From assembly GCF_900111255.1 (NCBI RefSeq), contig NZ_FOGP01000001.1:532894-596893 (forward strand): a DNA stretch of 64,000 nucleotides. The letters run 5' to 3'. Shown here piece after piece: positions 7,761-47,957 of the stretch. The stretch comes from Parafannyhessea umbonata. Its GTDB lineage: Bacteria; Actinomycetota; Coriobacteriia; Coriobacteriales; Atopobiaceae. The notes under the pieces are model-generated. The model saw only the letters and a list, made by a program, of their open reading frames with translations, was not told where the DNA came from and did not search any database. How positions within the stretch are numbered: the first letter of the stretch is position 1; every line of letters begins with the position of its first letter. Position numbers and translations under genes: made by a program.

Positions 7761-7792
7761 TGCCATGCCTGGTGTCTTGTGAGGATTTTTTT

Positions 7793-8636
7793 ATGCTCAT
7801 CTCCCAGAAGATAAACAACAACGTGGCCCTCGTGCTGGATGACTCCGACAGCGAGGTCGTTGTCTTCGGCAAGGGATCGGCTTTCCCAAGGCGCCCTACA
7901 CGCTGGTTGACGACTCCCTGGTCGAGCGCTCCTTCTGTGGGGTCTCTAAGTCTGTCGCCGCTGCGGTCAAGTCGCTTTCGTTCGAGAACATTATTGTCGC
8001 GGCCGACATCAACGACCTTGTGGCGTTCGAGCTCAACCGCAAGCCCAACCCCAACCTTCCGTTCACTCTTGCCGATCACATCCAGTACGCCCAGAAGCGT
8101 CTGCAGGAGGGGGTCGACATCCACAGCTCCCTCGAGGCCGAGGTCCGTCGAGTCTATCCCGTGGAGCTCGAGATCGCCCGCACGGGCGTGGGCATGATCA
8201 AGAGCCGTACGGGGTTCGAGCTTCCCGAGGCCGAGGCCGTCAACAATGCGCTTCACATCGTGAACTCCGAGGGCGCGCCCGGCATGGACTCCGCCGTGCC
8301 CACCAACATGCACTACGTCATGGAATCGACGCGCGTCATCGAGAAGATCGTCGAGCTGATCGAAGAGTCCTTCTCCATTGCTGCGGACACTCCTACGAGT
8401 TCGCCCGCTTCGCCGCCCACGTTCGCTTTCTGGTCGGGCGCTTCTCCCGCGGAGTCGTTAGCGAGACCACCAATCGTTCGCTGTTCAGACAGGCGGTCGA
8501 TGACTTTCCCGATGCGTACGCCTGTGTCTCGAAGGTTGACGCCTGGCTGCGTGACGAGATGGGCTGGCGCTGCAATGAGGAGGAGCTCCTGTATCTCTTG
8601 ATGCACGTCAACGGGTTGATATCCAGCACGAACTGA
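7793..8636 (+). pseudogene. BglG/LicT-family transcriptional antiterminator, two frameshifts
   Basis: ATG 7793 begins an N-terminal CAT RNA-binding domain (MLISQKINNNVALVLDD). Near 7877 one base is missing: restoring it gives GFPKAPYTLVDDSLVERSF in the frame that continues through PRD1. A second single-base loss near 8390 shifts PRD2; restoring it gives HSYEFARFAAHVRFLVGRF and an end at 8636 (VNGLISSTN). The intact protein would be about 280 residues, the family norm. Such proteins bind the RAT and are controlled by PTS phosphorylation of histidines in the PRDs. The gene is inactive as written unless the losses are sequencing errors; decay fits the interrupted PTS gene downstream. Confidence 0.85.
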
Positions 8637-8743
8637 TTGGCGGAATGCTTGCGTCCCGCAAGGGCAATGCAGATAGATAGTTTCATATTTGTTGAAATGC
8701 ACTAGACATGGGGTCTGGTTGCGATAGGGGAAAGGGGCTTGCC

Positions 8744-8970
8744 GTGGTCAAGGACTACACCGAGCTCGCGAAGACGATCATCGGGCTCGTTGGCGGTAGG
8801 TGGATCATCAACTCCGTCGCACACTGCATCACTCGGCTTCGCGTCAGGCCGAAGGACGAGTCGAAGGCCGACGACGAGAAGCTCCAGGCCACCAGGGACG
8901 TCATCAAGGTCATGCATGCCCAAGGCCAGTACCAGGTCGTCGTCGGTCAGGTCGTCGACAACCCCATTAC
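8744..8970 (+). pseudogene. Beta-glucoside PTS EIIB domain, cut off by IS110 element
   Basis: GTG 8744 with AAAGGGG upstream begins a protein whose first 75 residues match the EIIB domain of beta-glucoside PTS permeases, with the phosphorylated cysteine motif HCITRLRV. Homology stops at about VVDNP; the frame then runs into the IS110 left end and terminates at 9003. The membrane EIIC and EIIA domains (over 500 residues) are missing, and I see no remainder on the far side of the element, so the loss involved a deletion as well as the insertion. An in-frame ATG at 8708 is an alternative start. Confidence 0.8.
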
Positions 8971-8978
8971 AGTTCGAA

Positions 8979-9235
8979 ATAGCCCCTCGCGGATTGAGTT
9001 ATAGCCCCGGCGACGGCCGGGGCTATCTTTCTCTCAACCCCAGCATGGGGCCGCCGACCGGCCGCCCCCGCATGGCCGTATGCCCCTGCCCCATCGAGGG
9101 CCCGGGGGGTGTTGCCAGCGGAGGGCGGCGCGGCGCGCGTCGTGGACTAATGGGAACCTGCCGCACCAGACGGCTCGGTAATGTGGGTGTCCTCGCGCGG
9201 GCCTTCGGCCGGCCGACTTGGTTGGAGGATACATC
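8979..9235 (+). ncRNA. Candidate IS110 bridge RNA / structured left end
   Basis: The non-coding leader before the transposase contains a perfect 10-bp hairpin, ATAGCCCCGG (9001-9010) with CCGGGGCTAT (9017-9026). A second ATAGCCCC at 8979-8986 could compete for the same pairing partner. Bridge RNAs of the IS110 group are encoded in the left non-coding end, so the position is right, but loops that pair with target and donor could not be assigned by eye. Boundaries are arbitrary. Confidence 0.4.
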
Positions 9236-10429
9236 ATGCATGGCTTCGAAGGGCCCTACGACCTCTACGTCGGATTCGACGTCGGCAAGCGGGCCCACCA
9301 CGCTCACGCCGTCCTGGCGGACGGTCGCGACGCCTTCAGCACGGGCGTCGACAACTCCGAGGCCGCGATGGACAGGGTGATCGCGGACGCGGCCGAGCTG
9401 GGGACTCCCCTGGTCGTCGTCGACCAACGCAGGAACATCGGCATGCTGGCGATCAGGCGCGCCCGTGCCGCGGGCGTCGAGGTCGCATACCTTCCCGGCA
9501 TCTCGGCGAACAGGGCGTCGTCGCTCTTTCCCGGTGACGCGAAGACCGACGCGCGGGACGCCGAGGTCATCGCCAGAACGGCGATGGGGGTTCCGCAGTC
9601 GCTGAGGCCGGTTCCCGAGGAGGATGACCTCGAGGGAACCCGCAGGCTCGAGGCCCAACGCGCAGACCTGATCAAGGACAGGACGCACCAGGTCAATCGG
9701 CTGCGCTCCCTGCCGCTCGAGTCCAATCCTGACTTCGAGCGCAGGCTGGAACCCGAGGCGGCGTGGTGCATCGCAGTTCTCGAGAGGCTTGGTGGGCCGT
9801 GGAACGTCCTCGACGCAGGAAGGCGGCGCTTCCTTCGCGCCGCCTCGCAGGCGCCCCGGGAGAGGGCCGAGGCGGTATGGAGGAGCCTCGGGATGGCCAC
9901 GAGGCCCACCGAGCAGCAAGTGAAAGCCGAGACGGTCCTCGTCCCGATGATCGCGCGCAGAATCCGCGAGGACACGGAGCAGATAGAGGAGCTCGAAAGG
10001 CTCATCGACGAGCAGGTCATGGAAGAAGAGACCTACCAATGCCTGCTGACGATCCCCGGGATCGCCCGGAGGACGGCGACGCAGCTCGTGCTCAACGTTA
10101 GGATCGAGGACTTCGCAGACCACGACCACCTCGCGAGCTACTGCGGGCTGACTCCCAGGAACCGGCAGTCGGGCACGTCGCTGAACTCCGTCTCGGCGTC
10201 GCGACAGGGGAACAAGCAGCTGAAGAACGTGCTGATATTCAGCTGCAACAGCCTCCTAAGGGCCAAGGGGTACTTTCGCGAGTACTACGACTCCTGCCGC
10301 TTCCGAGGAATGACGCACAAGGCGGCGTTGAAGGCCACCGCGCGAAAGAGGATGAAAGTCATATATGCCGTGATGAGGGATCGCATGCCTTATCGAGAGG
10401 ACGCGCTGTTGCGGCGCCAGACACTGTAG
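9236..10429 (+). CDS. IS110-family transposase (RuvC-like DEDD recombinase)
   Basis: 397 residues from ATG 9236, preceded by GGAGG. N-terminal RuvC-like DEDD domain: D15 in YVGFDVGKRAHHA, then VVVDQRRN and KTDARDAEVIART. A coiled-coil stretch with EDTEQIEELERLIDEQ leads to the C-terminal Transposase_20 domain with PGIARRTATQLV and GTSLNSVSASRQGNKQLKN, where the catalytic serine of the family is expected. The gene looks intact. These enzymes insert and excise the element as a circular form, guided by a bridge RNA where studied. Confidence 0.93.
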   Translation: MHGFEGPYDLYVGFDVGKRAHHAHAVLADGRDAFSTGVDNSEAAMDRVIADAAELGTPLVVVDQRRNIGMLAIRRARAAGVEVAYLPGISANRASSLFPGDAKTDARDAEVIARTAMGVPQSLRPVPEEDDLEGTRRLEAQRADLIKDRTHQVNRLRSLPLESNPDFERRLEPEAAWCIAVLERLGGPWNVLDAGRRRFLRAASQAPRERAEAVWRSLGMATRPTEQQVKAETVLVPMIARRIREDTEQIEELERLIDEQVMEEETYQCLLTIPGIARRTATQLVLNVRIEDFADHDHLASYCGLTPRNRQSGTSLNSVSASRQGNKQLKNVLIFSCNSLLRAKGYFREYYDSCRFRGMTHKAALKATARKRMKVIYAVMRDRMPYREDALLRRQTL

Positions 10430-10456
10430 CAAGTCCACCGAGAGACGGAAGAGAAA

Positions 10457-10475
10457 GGCCCCTCGAGGAGGGGCC
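10457..10475 (+). terminator. Hairpin after the IS110 transposase
   Basis: GGCCCCTC pairs perfectly with GAGGGGCC across a 3-base loop, 28 bases after the transposase stop. No U-run follows, so it may be a structural part of the right end rather than a terminator. Confidence 0.5.
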
Positions 10476-10509
10476 CGTGTCGCTATGCAGATTAACCGAA
10501 TCTAAGTGC

Positions 10510-10546
10510 GGGCGTCCTGGTTGACAAAACTATGGGAACACCCCCC
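10510..10546. repeat. 37-nt direct repeat, copy 1
   Basis: Matches 44583-44619 in the same orientation, with identical bases over the last 26 (starting TTGACAAAACTATGGG and ending in six C) and few mismatches in the first 11. Possibly the end of a lost insertion sequence; the copies bracket the accessory and polysaccharide region. Confidence 0.75.
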
Positions 10547-10944: not shown

Positions 10945-11187
10945 GTCGGCCCGCGCCCGATCGTCGACGATGAGCTCGCCCACTACGGCGACGACCTCGA
11001 CGAGTTCCTCAGCTGCAAGCCCGGCGTCACGGGCTGGTGGCAGGTGCAGGCCAGAAACGACGCCACTTACGCCGACGGCAGCCGCCAGCAGCTCGAGCTC
11101 TACTACGCCCGCCACGCCTCGGCCACGCTCGACCTCAACATCGTCCTGCGCACCTTCTCCGTCGTCTTCGACGGAGCCGGCAAGTAG
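10945..11187 (+). pseudogene. C-terminal fragment of WbaP-like priming transferase
   Basis: Bases from GTCGGCCCGCGCCCGATCG to the TAG at 11185-11187 encode the last 80 residues of a bacterial sugar transferase (GPRPIVDDELAHYG, CKPGVTGWWQVQARND, ATYADGSRQQLELYYARH). It is almost identical to the end of the complete gene at 15418-16827, with only a few substitutions. The catalytic N-terminal part and the membrane domain are absent. Similarity continues a little past the stop codon, showing that a DNA segment, not only the gene, was copied. Confidence 0.88.
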
Positions 11188-11258
11188 CGAAGCGCACCCA
11201 AGCTGCCGAGAAGGACCTCGCCTTGATCGAGTCCTGTGCGTCACTTGGCACCCGTGAG

Positions 11259-15417: not shown

Positions 15418-16827
15418 ATGGACAAGGGCGGAACACTAAGAAGGCTCGCACTCTGGGCAATGGATGTCGCATGCATACTGTCCGCATATTGGGCGTCCGT
15501 GTCGATTCGTTTCGGCGATCACATCGAGCCGTCTGAAGCTCGCACCAATCGCATCGTCTACCTGTCGCTGGTGTTGCTGGTCACGTTTTTCAACTACGCC
15601 ATCCACCTTAATCGAGGCTTCATGAAGCGTCGCGCCGTTCAGGAGCTCGGCGTCGTGATTGCCTATGTTGCCATGCTTGTGCTTGGTATTTCATTTCTGG
15701 CGCTTGTCATGCATGCGGAGCCCATGCCGTCTCGCCTGGTTCTGATCTGGTTCACGCTGATTTGCATCGGCGTGATGTTCGTGGTTCGCGTGACGTTCAA
15801 GTGGCTTGTGCGGGCCCTGTTCGGCCGTACCGGCGCTCGTTCTACCGTTCTCATGGTGATCGATGAGGGCATGCGCGATGAGCTGGAGAAGAGGTTCGTC
15901 ATTGGCCAAACCTACGAGGTCTTGGGCTGGCTCACGTTCAGGCCTGAGGGACGCCTCTGCGGCGACGTTTCGGGAAAGGCGATCGACTGCGAGCTGGGTG
16001 GCCTTTCCGCCGCACTCTCCGACCTCGATGTCAATGACGTCTTCGTCTCCACCCCGCACGCCACCAAGGTCCACCTCACCACCCTCGTGGACGCCGCCGC
16101 GCAGATGGGCGCCACCTGCCACGTCGCACTCGACCTCATCGACCCTACCATCCAGGGCGCTACGCTCGGCTACTTCGGCGAGCTGTCCACCATCAACTAC
16201 GCCGGAAGGGGAGGGTGGCTCTACGCGCACGTCCTCAAGCGCGCGTTCGACATCCTCTTCAGCCTCGTGGTGCTGGTGCTCATGGTCATCCCGGGCGCGA
16301 TCCTCTGCCTCGTGATCGCCCTGCAGAGCAAGGGTTCGCCCTTCTACACGCAGCGCCGCGTCGGCCTGCACGGCCGCCACTTCAACCTCTACAAGTTCCG
16401 CTCCATGGTGGCCGACGCCAACGACGTCGAGAAGTACTTCACGCCCGAGCAGCTCGCCGAGTGGGAGCGTGAGCGCAAGGTGGAGGACGACCCGCGCATC
16501 ACGGCCGTCGGCCGCATCCTGCGCAAGACCTCCCTCGACGAGTTCCCCCAGTTCGTCAACGTCCTCAAGGGTGAGATGAGCGTCGTCGGCCCGCGCCCGA
16601 TCGTCGACGAGGAGCTCGCGCACTACGGCGACGACCTCGACGAGTTCCTCGGCTGCAAGCCCGGCGTCACGGGCTGGTGGCAGGTGCAGGCGAGAAACGA
16701 CGCCACCTACGCCGACGGCAGCCGCCAGCAGCTCGAGCTCTACTATGCTCGCCACGCATCCGCCACGCTCGACTTCAACATCGTCCTGCGCACCTTCTCC
16801 GCCGTCTTCGACGCCACCGGGAAGTAG
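15418..16827 (+). CDS. WbaP/CpsE-like undecaprenyl-phosphate sugar-1-phosphate transferase
   Basis: 469 residues. It starts polysaccharide synthesis by moving a sugar-1-phosphate from a UDP-sugar to undecaprenyl phosphate at the cytoplasmic membrane. Four hydrophobic segments occupy about residues 10-125, then a soluble CoA-binding-like domain (about 135-260), a further membrane-inserting helix (FDILFSLVVLVLMVIPGA, about 278-295) and the catalytic sugar-transferase domain with KFRSMVADAND, KTSLDEFPQFVN and KGEMSVVGPRP. The end CKPGVTGWWQVQARND is typical. Length is normal. It is the complete member of a set of one full and two broken copies, and the natural first gene of the locus; a 1.2-kb gap separates it from the next gene. 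Confidence 0.92.
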   Translation: MDKGGTLRRLALWAMDVACILSAYWASVSIRFGDHIEPSEARTNRIVYLSLVLLVTFFNYAIHLNRGFMKRRAVQELGVVIAYVAMLVLGISFLALVMHAEPMPSRLVLIWFTLICIGVMFVVRVTFKWLVRALFGRTGARSTVLMVIDEGMRDELEKRFVIGQTYEVLGWLTFRPEGRLCGDVSGKAIDCELGGLSAALSDLDVNDVFVSTPHATKVHLTTLVDAAAQMGATCHVALDLIDPTIQGATLGYFGELSTINYAGRGGWLYAHVLKRAFDILFSLVVLVLMVIPGAILCLVIALQSKGSPFYTQRRVGLHGRHFNLYKFRSMVADANDVEKYFTPEQLAEWERERKVEDDPRITAVGRILRKTSLDEFPQFVNVLKGEMSVVGPRPIVDEELAHYGDDLDEFLGCKPGVTGWWQVQARNDATYADGSRQQLELYYARHASATLDFNIVLRTFSAVFDATGK

Positions 16828-18038
16828 GAAAGCGCCATCCCAGCGGCCGAGAAGAGCCAGGCCCTCTATTGTAAGGTCGCGGCTGGCATCAATCATCCGC
16901 GCGTTGAAATCTAGTCACATCAGTCAGATGAGATCGTGTGCGCGGACCAGAGACGAAGGCAGCTTTGTGCGACTGCGTCTGAGGTCGGGCCGTTGGCGAG
17001 GCGCTCGGGGTCCCGTTTGAGTTCAAGCGGTACGGTATGTTTACGTGCTCGAGCATGGTCGGCGATGGTTTGTGCGTCAAGCCCGCTGGTACGAGGAATG
17101 ACGACGTTCCGATTGCGTTTGCGACTTGCGGATCGTTCGCAAGATCGAGCACATCGGCAGCGCCGACTTCCAACGCCGCCTCGAGTGGCGATACCACGAG
17201 AACACCCGCTCGGCCGCCGATCCATTCGCCATAGGAGGCCGTCCATTGAGCCTCTTTGGGGCAAGCGCTTGAAGGACATTCTTGATGGGTCGATTGACAT
17301 GGAGGGCATCTCTAAGTAATTCGTCGAAGCCTCGAGGCGCTTTGCGGCACACGATTCGAACGAAAGCGTCTATGTAATGTATCAACGTGTGTTGGGTGAG
17401 ACGCGGCGACAGCTCTGATAATCTGTATCCGTTAGGCACATATCGCGTCTCATTCCTCTAGTCTCAGTTTAATGTTGACGTGATGTACTCTTAGGTTTAC
17501 TTAGCGCTTGCGCCGGATGATGTTGTTTTCCCGCGCAAGCGCTGTGCCACGCCTGCGACGATTCGTGTCGATACGTTGGCGCGTGGCGTCCGGTGGTGGG
17601 TTGGGAGCTGCGATTGGGAGACGGGCGACGGGTGAAGGCTGCGGTGGTCCCATATTTGACATACAAATGATAGTCGTGGTGCCAACCGTTAAAGATGGGC
17701 GTTTAAATCGTGGGCGCCTGAATGGAGCGACTCGTTACCGCCCAAAGCGTAATTGTAAAGATGGAGCTCTAGGGGTGCCCCTTGGCGGACCGAGAAACGA
17801 TAAATCGACAACTAAACGGGCGGCGAAAAGGGCCGTCGAAGGGTCACGCGGGCCACATGTGGTCTACAAGAGTCCTTCTATGTGTGTGCCGACAATAACT
17901 GTTGTATATGATGTGAAAAATTTGAAAGTTATAGGTTTGTTTCGTGACTGATGCGGGCGGGGTCCCCAAGGCGTTTGTCTGGCTCATGCATAGACTGCAG
18001 GGCCTGGCTTCGCCGGGTCTGTTCTGAGGAGGCTGGGT
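16828..18038. other. 1.2-kb stretch without an intact gene
   Basis: Short minus-strand pieces look coding-like, for example FDELLRDALHVNRPIKN (near 17310) and VLDLANDPQVANAIG (near 17130), but in different frames and without a recognisable family, so I read them as a decayed gene or genes. The segment just after the priming-transferase stop is similar to the sequence after the fragment ending at 11187. A perfect hairpin stands at 17503-17543. TTGTATATGATG near 17900 may hold a promoter for the next gene. Confidence 0.4.
17503..17543. repeat. Perfect 11-bp inverted repeat
   Basis: AGCGCTTGCGC (17503-17513) and GCGCAAGCGCT (17533-17543) are exact complements with a 19-base loop that includes GTTGTTTTC. 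No U-run follows. It stands alone in the non-coding stretch and may be the remnant of a mobile-element end or a structural site. Confidence 0.7.
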
Positions 18039-43888: not shown

Positions 43889-44777
43889 TTCAGCTCCCTG
43901 CTTCTTCTCTGCCGTGGGGTGGGTCGGGGGGGCAAGCGTTGCACTGGTGTGGGTGGGTGGGCACCTGGACGCCGCGAGAGGTGTGCCTGTCTTGTTCTTT
44001 TGTTTCCCGCTACGCAACTGATGAGGCATTCCCCCCCGGCCGCGTCCGTCGATGGGCGCCGTGTTGATGCATCCGATGGCGATTCTGGGTAGGTTGCGCG
44101 AAAGGCACTGCCGGCGCACGCAATTCTTAACGGCCCCTTGTTGGTGCGAACGATGGGGCGATGCCTCTCGTCAATCTGAATGCCTTCCGAATACATGTCG
44201 TCATTCTGGGGACCACCGAACAGAGCAAACAGTTCGGAGAGTCGGTATAGAAGGTTGGTCTTGGTTGTGATGGTGGTTGGCGAGAACAACCACCACAGGG
44301 GTCGGGCTCTCGTCTACGCAGTCTGGCCGGGACATAGCCTAACCGCCGTTTTCTTGCCATCGCATGGCATTGCCAATGGGTCAGCTGGTGTATATCGCTG
44401 TCGCTCATAGTGAAAGCCAATGCATTCGGATGGGGCGCAGCGTCAAGGAGTTCAATAGCGCGAGAACGCAATGCCCGATCCGATCGTCGGATTAAATCAA
44501 CCAATCCGAGTCAGATAATAATAGCCACGGCACACGCCCTGCCGCCCCCATGCCAGTGCCGTCGGCGCATCGTCGTTGTGGGGGGCGTTCCGCTTGACAA
44601 AACTATGGGAACACCCCCCAACGATAGCCCGACCCCGCTCTCGTCCCCGACCGTCCCCTCGGACGCTCTTGTGGGATCCGGTCGCGCATGTGCGAGGGGC
44701 ACTCTGGCGAAGAGGCGCTCCAATCATGCCCTTAATGCGACTCAATCGGCATAATCGCATGCATTTTGCCCGCTTGT
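43889..44777. other. 0.9-kb region without an intact gene, right end of the variable region
   Basis: Minus-strand pieces look coding-like, for example MYSEGIQIDERHRPIVRTNKG at about 44130-44195 given here as YSEGIQIDERHRPIV, and ALAFTMSDSDIHQLTHWQ near 44400, but in different frames and of no recognised family. The region also holds copy 2 of the 37-nt repeat and an inverted repeat-like GTCGGATTAAATC near 44484. Best read as decayed mobile or accessory DNA. Confidence 0.4.
44583..44619. repeat. 37-nt direct repeat, copy 2
   Basis: Same sequence and orientation as 10510-10546, identical over the last 26 bases. The spacing between the two copies, about 34 kb, includes the toxin-antitoxin genes and the whole polysaccharide locus. 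Confidence 0.75.
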
Positions 44778-47921: not shown

Positions 47922-47957
47922 TGTCCCGCCTCCCGGCCTGTGCCGGGAGGCGGGACA
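47922..47957 (-). promoter_or_regulatory. Perfect 16-bp hairpin in the pepC leader
   Basis: TGTCCCGCCTCCCGGC (47922-47937) and its exact complement (47942-47957) enclose a 4-base loop, 19 bases before the pepC ATG. Read on the minus strand it is followed by the ribosome-binding site and has no U-run. On the plus strand TGTTTTAG follows, but no gene upstream needs a terminator. It may control pepC translation or message stability. Confidence 0.8.

What the first reader, a model, noticed from the sequence alone, without database searches (positions are those of the whole stretch)
8971..9235. Structured left end of IS110 element, possible bridge RNA
The 265-base non-coding leader has a perfect 10-bp hairpin with a second copy of one arm upstream (ATAGCCCC at 8979 and 9001), so alternative foldings exist. 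IS110 elements studied so far carry a bridge RNA in this position, whose loops pair with target and donor DNA. The element is inserted in a PTS gene, giving a natural target sequence to compare.
Basis: partly seen in the sequence, partly recalled or inferred. Interest (0 to 1): 0.6.

Follow-up and report, generated by a model that had tools for sequence, protein, structure and literature searches.

The report
IS110 element with left-end bridge RNA

Summary
The element is an intact IS110-family insertion sequence from a coriobacterium (relatives include Olsenella porci). It runs from window 8966 (ATTACAGT) to 10541 (…GGAACAC); the recombinase is 9236-10429. About 60 related copies across class Coriobacteriia fix the ends. 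Aligned left ends show a bridge RNA at about 9036-9200, with a 5' stem-loop, a target-binding loop and a donor-binding loop. Its helices covary: 16 of 29 pairs change on both sides, and no shuffle matches. The guides track the DNA they should pair with. The left donor guide (9150-9157) equals the RE donor sequence in 50 of 53 copies. The right target guide is GGGGG where targets are CCCCC, GGGAC where they are GTCCC, and GUUGG where they are CCAAY; guide and target switched together on four tree branches. Unoccupied sites in other Collinsella confirm the ends.

Only the left flank is PTS. Most copies, this one included, sit in C tracts. A new member of a known kind. Possible twist: donor core AC, target core CC. 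No expression or activity data exist.

The parts
8708..8962 (+). 5' fragment of a beta-glucoside/sucrose-type PTS EIIB-containing gene, left flank of the insertion
   Evidence: Pfam PTS_EIIB 4.4e-10, NCBIfam TIGR01995; intact homologues in L040/L041 continue as GACAACATCTACGA
8962..8965 (+). CCCC, target-side bases (target core CC at 8964-8965) left of the element
   Evidence: left-junction comparison of about 60 copies
8966..10541 (+). the IS110 element (left end, recombinase, right end)
   Evidence: ends fixed by comparing copies and unoccupied sites of relatives
8966..8973 (+). ATTACAGT: right-donor sequence; TACAGT (8968-8973) would be the -10 of a promoter formed when the ends join in the circle
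   Evidence: TACAGT in 63 of 64 left ends, 17 nt from TTGACA in 56 of 56 RE|LE joins
   Evidence: terminator-like stems here in 20 of 47 left ends vs 0.6 expected
9023..9029 (+). CTATCTT, -10-like box at the column where many relatives read TACGAT; possible internal bridge-RNA promoter
   Evidence: alignment; inference
9037..9050 (+). 5' stem-loop of the bridge RNA
   Evidence: alignment
9036..9200 (+). predicted bridge RNA (both ends approximate)
   Evidence: helix covariation and RNAalifold
9063..9076 (+). target-binding loop stem, 5' arm
   Evidence: 13 pairs, 8 with changes on both sides
9114..9127 (+). target-binding loop stem, 3' arm
   Evidence: arm-swap test 322 vs 266 pairs, 0 of 5000
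9078..9085 (+). left target guide (LTG) GUAUGCCC
   Evidence: LTG-LT identity 268 vs 229 by shuffles, 0 of 20000; collapsed 38 of 20000
9088..9101 (+). apical hairpin of the target-binding loop
   Evidence: helix 2 (C-G, U-A and G-C at one pair)
9104..9108 (+). right target guide (RTG) GGGGG
   Evidence: RTG-RT pairs 247 of 265, shuffle mean 197, 0 of 20000; four concordant changes on the tree
9109..9111 (+). GUG, core/handshake nucleotides, complementary to donor CAC
   Evidence: GUG follows the RTG in every copy where the RTG could be read; handshake reading is inference from PMC11208158
9142..9147 (+). donor-binding loop outer stem, 5' arm
   Evidence: helix 3
9150..9157 (+). left donor guide (LDG) AUGGGAAC
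   Evidence: identical to LD at 10532-10539; 50 of 53 copies match over 7 nt, 0 of 20000 shuffles reach the total
9160..9174 (+). donor-binding loop inner hairpin
   Evidence: helix 4
9178..9186 (+). right donor guide (RDG) GUAAUGUGG; GUAAUGU complements donor AC-ATTAC
   Evidence: near-invariant in relatives
9189..9195 (+). donor-binding loop outer stem, 3' arm
   Evidence: helix 3
9236..10429 (+). IS110 recombinase, 397 aa
   Evidence: Pfam PF01548 1.6e-32 and PF02371 3.1e-19; NCBIfam NF033542 'IS110 family RNA-guided transposase' above cut-off
10521..10541 (+). right-end terminus TTGACAAAACTATGGGAACAC: -35 box, left-donor ATGGGAAC (10532-10539), donor core AC (10540-10541)
   Evidence: TTGACA in 64 of 65 right ends
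10542..10546 (+). CCCCC, right half of the target (C tract)

Best explanation
This is an intact IS110-group insertion sequence whose left end is transcribed into a bridge RNA of about 165 nt (roughly 9036-9200). The donor-binding loop pairs with the element's joined ends in the excised circle: LDG 9150-9157 with the RE sequence ATGGGAAC, and RDG 9178-9184 with AC|ATTAC. The target-binding loop pairs with the target: LTG 9078-9085 with the left half, and RTG GGGGG 9104-9108 with a CCCCC right half. The recombinase, guided by both loops, cuts and joins circle and target, so this subfamily lands in C tracts. In the circle the joined ends form a promoter (TTGACA-17-TACAGT). The 9001-9026 hairpin is a terminator-like stem between the terminus and the bridge RNA, probably shielding it from outside transcription. 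Shown here: ends, conserved RNA structure, guide/DNA covariation, unoccupied target sites. Inferred: transcription, exact RNA ends, binding, catalysis, and the terminator and promoter roles.
For: Recombinase family; related to the IS621 and ISCro4 structures. Ends: about 60 copies share CC-ATTACAGT and TTGACA...GGAACAC or its variants. RNA structure: 29 pairs, 92.5% of cells paired, 16 pairs with changes on both sides, covariation score 0.308 vs 0.109 in shuffles (0 of 500), and at most 0.081 when slid by 1-3 columns; RNAalifold recovers the same two internal-loop hairpins. Guides: LDG-LD 368 of 371 letters vs 316 by shuffle; RTG-RT 247 of 265 vs 197, both 0 of 20000. On a recombinase tree RTG and RT change together on 4 branches and LDG and LD on 3, one private to this window's lineage. 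Unoccupied targets: AGAACGTCC|CCAATGACTA repeats, more than 100 copies in 10 of 12 Collinsella genomes and none for the reversed control pattern, equal the joined flanks of group-A insertions. Group B's joined flanks AGCCCC|GTCCC equal a nearby inverted copy of the repeat. C tracts occupy the same loci in other strains. Circle promoter: spacing 17 in 56 of 56.
Against: There are no transcript or activity data. Rfam has no matching family. LTG-LT agreement is weak outside one REP-targeting subgroup; in this copy the LTG matches 4 of 8 left-target bases, mostly the C run. The right flank of this copy is not the rest of the PTS gene, so its pre-insertion site cannot be reconstructed. A terminator just downstream of a circle-junction promoter is hard to reconcile with bridge RNA being made from that promoter. 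Joined C runs are 1-3 C longer than those at the unoccupied loci of other strains, so the exact cut within a C run is uncertain by about two bases.
Confidence: 0.92

Rival explanations
1. The 9001-9026 hairpin is itself part of the bridge RNA, an extra 5' domain made from the circle-junction promoter (predicted start near 8980).
For: TTGACA-17-TACAGT spans the join in 56 of 56 copies, which would start a transcript upstream of the hairpin; in IS621 the RNA is made from such a promoter (PMC11208160).
Against: The hairpin is not conserved beyond close relatives, and replacements are either terminator-like with T tails or absent. A -10-like box (TACGAT in many copies) sits just upstream of the conserved 5' stem-loop.
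Confidence: 0.2
2. The left end is only a structured leader that controls recombinase translation, with no guide function.
For: Structured leaders upstream of transposase genes are common; the RNA ends just before the recombinase start codon.
Against: Loop sequences covary with the far right end and with flanking target DNA, including four concordant RTG/target changes. A leader has no reason to track those.
Confidence: 0.03
3. The guide/DNA agreement is inherited similarity between related copies rather than pairing.
For: Copies are related, and guide types follow clades to a large extent.
Against: Changes are concordant on separate branches (GGGAC/GTCCC arises twice and reverts once), and the target half is host DNA that differs for every insertion.
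Confidence: 0.04

Closest known systems
IS621 bridge-RNA system (IS110 group; PMC11208160, PMC11208158)
   Same: Recombinase with RuvC-like and Tnp domains; bridge RNA in a long left end; [quoted passage not shown] target loop first, donor loop second; guides pair with both strands around the core; circle junction makes a promoter; REP-like targets in two of the subgroups seen here.
   Different: Only distant sequence similarity (the Tnp domain aligns clearly, the RuvC domain weakly). Core is AC in the donor and CC in the target instead of a shared CT. The acidic residue aligned with the catalytic E is D (VVDQ) in this clade. Main target class is a C tract.
ISEc20 and Streptomyces IS110-family elements
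   Same: Same broader recombinase clade (34-38% identity) with the VDQ motif.
   Different: Their ends and bridge RNAs were not analysed here.
IS1111 group
   Same: Same recombinase family, bridge RNA predicted.
   Different: IS1111 elements carry the RNA in the right end and have long subterminal inverted repeats (PMC11208160); here it is in the left end and the right end is only about 112 nt.

Membership tests
IS110 family (IS110 group) | Recombinase with PF01548 (DEDD RuvC-like) and PF02371 domains | tested here: met
   NCBIfam NF033542 above cut-off
IS110 family (IS110 group) | D-E-D-D acidic residues and a conserved serine | tested here: inconclusive
   D15, D105, D108 and S312 are invariant in alignment A2, and the serine aligns with the SG(S/T)S motif of IS621; the E position reads D63 in all members, also in ISEc20 and Streptomyces relatives, so the acid is kept but not as E
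IS110 family (IS110 group) | Long non-coding left end, short right end, no long terminal inverted repeats | tested here: met
   LE 270 nt and RE 112 nt from the ends and the CDS; terminal repeats judged by eye
Bridge RNA | Conserved RNA in LE: 5' stem-loop plus two stem-loops with internal loops | tested here: met
Bridge RNA | Second loop complementary to, and covarying with, the element's own ends (LDG/LD, RDG/RD) | tested here: met
   LDG-LD 50 of 53 perfect over 7 nt; RDG complementary to an invariant RD
Bridge RNA | First loop complementary to, and covarying with, the target (LTG/LT, RTG/RT) | tested here: met
   RTG-RT clear; LTG-LT weaker
Bridge RNA | RNA is expressed, binds the recombinase and is required for recombination | not testable with these tools
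   needs experiment
IS621-type core | CT core dinucleotide shared by donor and target | tested here: not met
   junctions and unoccupied sites give donor AC, target CC

The most novel reading that the evidence does not exclude
In this clade donor and target do not share a core dinucleotide (donor AC, target CC; only the second base is common). The invariant GU in the target loop matches the donor core and not the target core, so the top strands gain a pair only after exchange: a handshake built into the core itself that would favour the forward reaction. The main subfamily is also programmed to insert into C tracts, which are slippage-prone sites.
Probability: 0.35. Interest if true: 0.55.

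Novelty: new member of a known kind. Interest (0 to 1): 0.38.

Why it matters
It gives a clean natural series of bridge RNAs in Coriobacteriia, with three target programmes (C tract, GTCCC repeat, CCAAT repeat) under one scaffold. That is useful for learning how target loops are re-coded in nature, and it adds a non-CT, possibly asymmetric core to the known range. For this genome it explains the structured leader and shows that the hairpin is not the guide RNA.

Tried and rejected
Rfam at gathering and at relaxed thresholds: nothing relevant. First viral-contig scan with the window protein: no hit. Reconstructing the target at the PTS junction: the right flank is unrelated. RNAalifold on the first wide alignment gave a poor fold because one stem differs in length between subgroups; a subset with equal stem length was used instead. 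A shared CC core with two flipped bases in the RDG, by analogy with IS621's nine-against-seven pairing, was considered; it does not fit the conservative base count of the REP-targeting groups, but cannot be excluded for the C-tract group. The D at the E position was first thought special; it is shared with ISEc20 and Streptomyces relatives. Large insertions inside the recombinase gene of some relatives look like nested insertions and damaged copies, not part of this system.

Full report
What was reported. The hairpin is real and slightly longer than stated: 11 bp, 9001-9011 with 9016-9026, loop GACG. It is one of two perfect hairpins of 11 bp or more with a loop of 3-8 in the window, against 0.25 expected. 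The leader folds modestly better than shuffles, z = -2.6.

The element. The ORF 9236-10429 encodes a 397-aa recombinase with both IS110 domains. NCBIfam calls it an IS110 family RNA-guided transposase, above its cut-off. The genome holds one copy plus a distant relative, 31% identical, on another contig. Searches of the same family, class and phylum gave many relatives; 74 distinct junction sets were tabulated. Left ends read CC-ATTACAGT and right ends read TTGACA, a short spacer, then TATRGGAACAC, CATAGAGACAC and similar, followed by target DNA. This puts the element at 8966-10541.

The bridge RNA. Left ends align over 42 diverse copies. A core of 19 with equal stem length gave alignment A3. 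A structure written by hand from the alignment has 29 pairs: 92.5% of cells paired, 16 pairs with changes on both sides, covariation score 0.308 against a shuffled mean of 0.109 (0 of 500), and 0.046-0.081 when slid by 1-3 columns. RNAalifold independently returns the same two hairpins with internal loops. Swapping arms between copies lowers pairing in all three stems tested, with no shuffle (of 5000 or 20000) reaching the observed value. The order, a 5' stem-loop, then a target loop, then a donor loop, is that of IS621 (PMC11208160).

Guides. LDG: the 7 nt in the donor loop equal the right-end sequence in 50 of 53 copies (ATAGGAA, ATAGAGA, ATAGGGA, ATGGGAA), total 368 of 371 letters vs 316 by shuffle, 0 of 20000. 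The window and Olsenella porci share the variant ATGGGAA. In the window this is LDG 9150-9157 and LD 10532-10539. RDG: GUAAUGU (9178-9184) complements AC|ATTAC at the joined ends and is nearly invariant, so it adds complementarity but little covariation. RTG: GGGGG, GGGAC or GUUGG faces target CCCCC, GTCCC or CCAAY; 247 of 265 positions paired vs 197, 0 of 20000. On a recombinase tree RTG and RT change together on four branches, and LDG and LD on three. LTG: agreement is clear in the group with GAACGUCC facing GAACGTCC and weak elsewhere.

Targets. Two Collinsella subgroups sit in repeated extragenic palindromes. The unoccupied form AGAACGTCCCCAATGACTA and close variants occur repeatedly in 10 of 12 genomes searched, with no match for the reversed pattern, and the joined flanks of group A insertions reproduce it. 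Group B joined flanks, AGCCCC|GTCCC, equal an inverted copy of the repeat next to the insertion. Most other copies, this window included, sit in C tracts. Joined flanks carry 7-11 C in the eight Collinsella sites examined, and the same loci without the element carry 6-10 C where uninterrupted, or a tract broken by another base. The 64-kb window itself has only two runs of 7 or more C or G. Joined runs exceed the unoccupied ones by 1-3 C, which may reflect tract-length variation or one or two element-borne Cs; this is not resolved.

Core. In the two palindrome groups a conservative exchange requires a circle junction of GGAACAC|ATTACAG (or GAGACAC|ATTACAG), so the donor core is AC and the target core CC. 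The three RNA bases after the RTG are GUG in every copy where the RTG could be read; they complement donor CAC. IS621 handshake guides lie one or two bases further out (PMC11208158). That the GU here favours the exchanged state is an inference.

Promoter and hairpin. Joining RE to LE places TTGACA 17 nt from TACAGT in 56 of 56 copies, which explains why these bases are conserved beyond the guide pairing. Terminator-like stems occur in the first 110 nt of 20 of 47 distinct left ends vs 0.6 expected, and the pattern scan calls 9001-9026 terminator-like. In many other relatives no such stem is found. I read it as a shield against transcription from outside. Why a terminator should follow the circle promoter is unexplained; an internal -10-like box (TACGAT in many copies, TATCTT here) may drive the bridge RNA.

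The insertion site. The left flank is the first part of a PTS EIIB gene. The right flank is not PTS; from about 10945 it matches sugar-transferase-like sequence that is also duplicated in this window. The rest of the PTS gene is not found except as distant paralogues. The site was rearranged after insertion, or the gene was already broken.

Verdict. A well-supported new member of the IS110 bridge-RNA kind. No expression or biochemical evidence is available here.

Noticed in passing
window 44594-44614: A lone IS110 right-end terminus (TTGACAAAACTATGGGAACAC followed by CCCCC) with no recombinase or left end beside it; a similar lone terminus exists in a same-genus genome (L048). Probably remnants of lost copies.
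   Followed up: partly
L005, L006/L039, L011: In three MAGs of one genus the recombinase N-terminal part is joined to the same helicase-gene fragment. In L039 about 6 kb of chromosomal-type genes (metK, radical SAM, TetR, DegV-like) lie between it and the C-terminal part, while the left flanks of L005 and L006 differ. Nested insertion, rearrangement, or a composite element.
   Followed up: partly
L012 (G042), left junction: Left junction reads GCCAC-ATTACAG instead of CC-ATTACAG; it could be the other outcome of heteroduplex resolution at the core (donor AC kept on the left).
   Followed up: no
L021: A right end directly abuts a left end (GACAAAACCATAGAGACACCCCCCATTACAG), most simply a copy inserted into the C tract at another copy's right end.
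   Followed up: no
window 10945-11214 and 16585-16854: A sugar-transferase-like stretch to the right of the element is duplicated about 5.6 kb downstream at 92% identity.
   Followed up: no
window 7776-8636: An apparent BglG-type antiterminator gene just upstream of the PTS fragment is split across reading frames, so the whole PTS locus looks degraded.
   Followed up: no
window 47922-47957: A 16-bp perfect hairpin with a 4-nt loop, the strongest in the window.
   Followed up: no
window 10457-10475: GC-rich hairpin GGCCCCTCGAGGAGGGGCC just after the recombinase stop codon, possibly its terminator.
   Followed up: no
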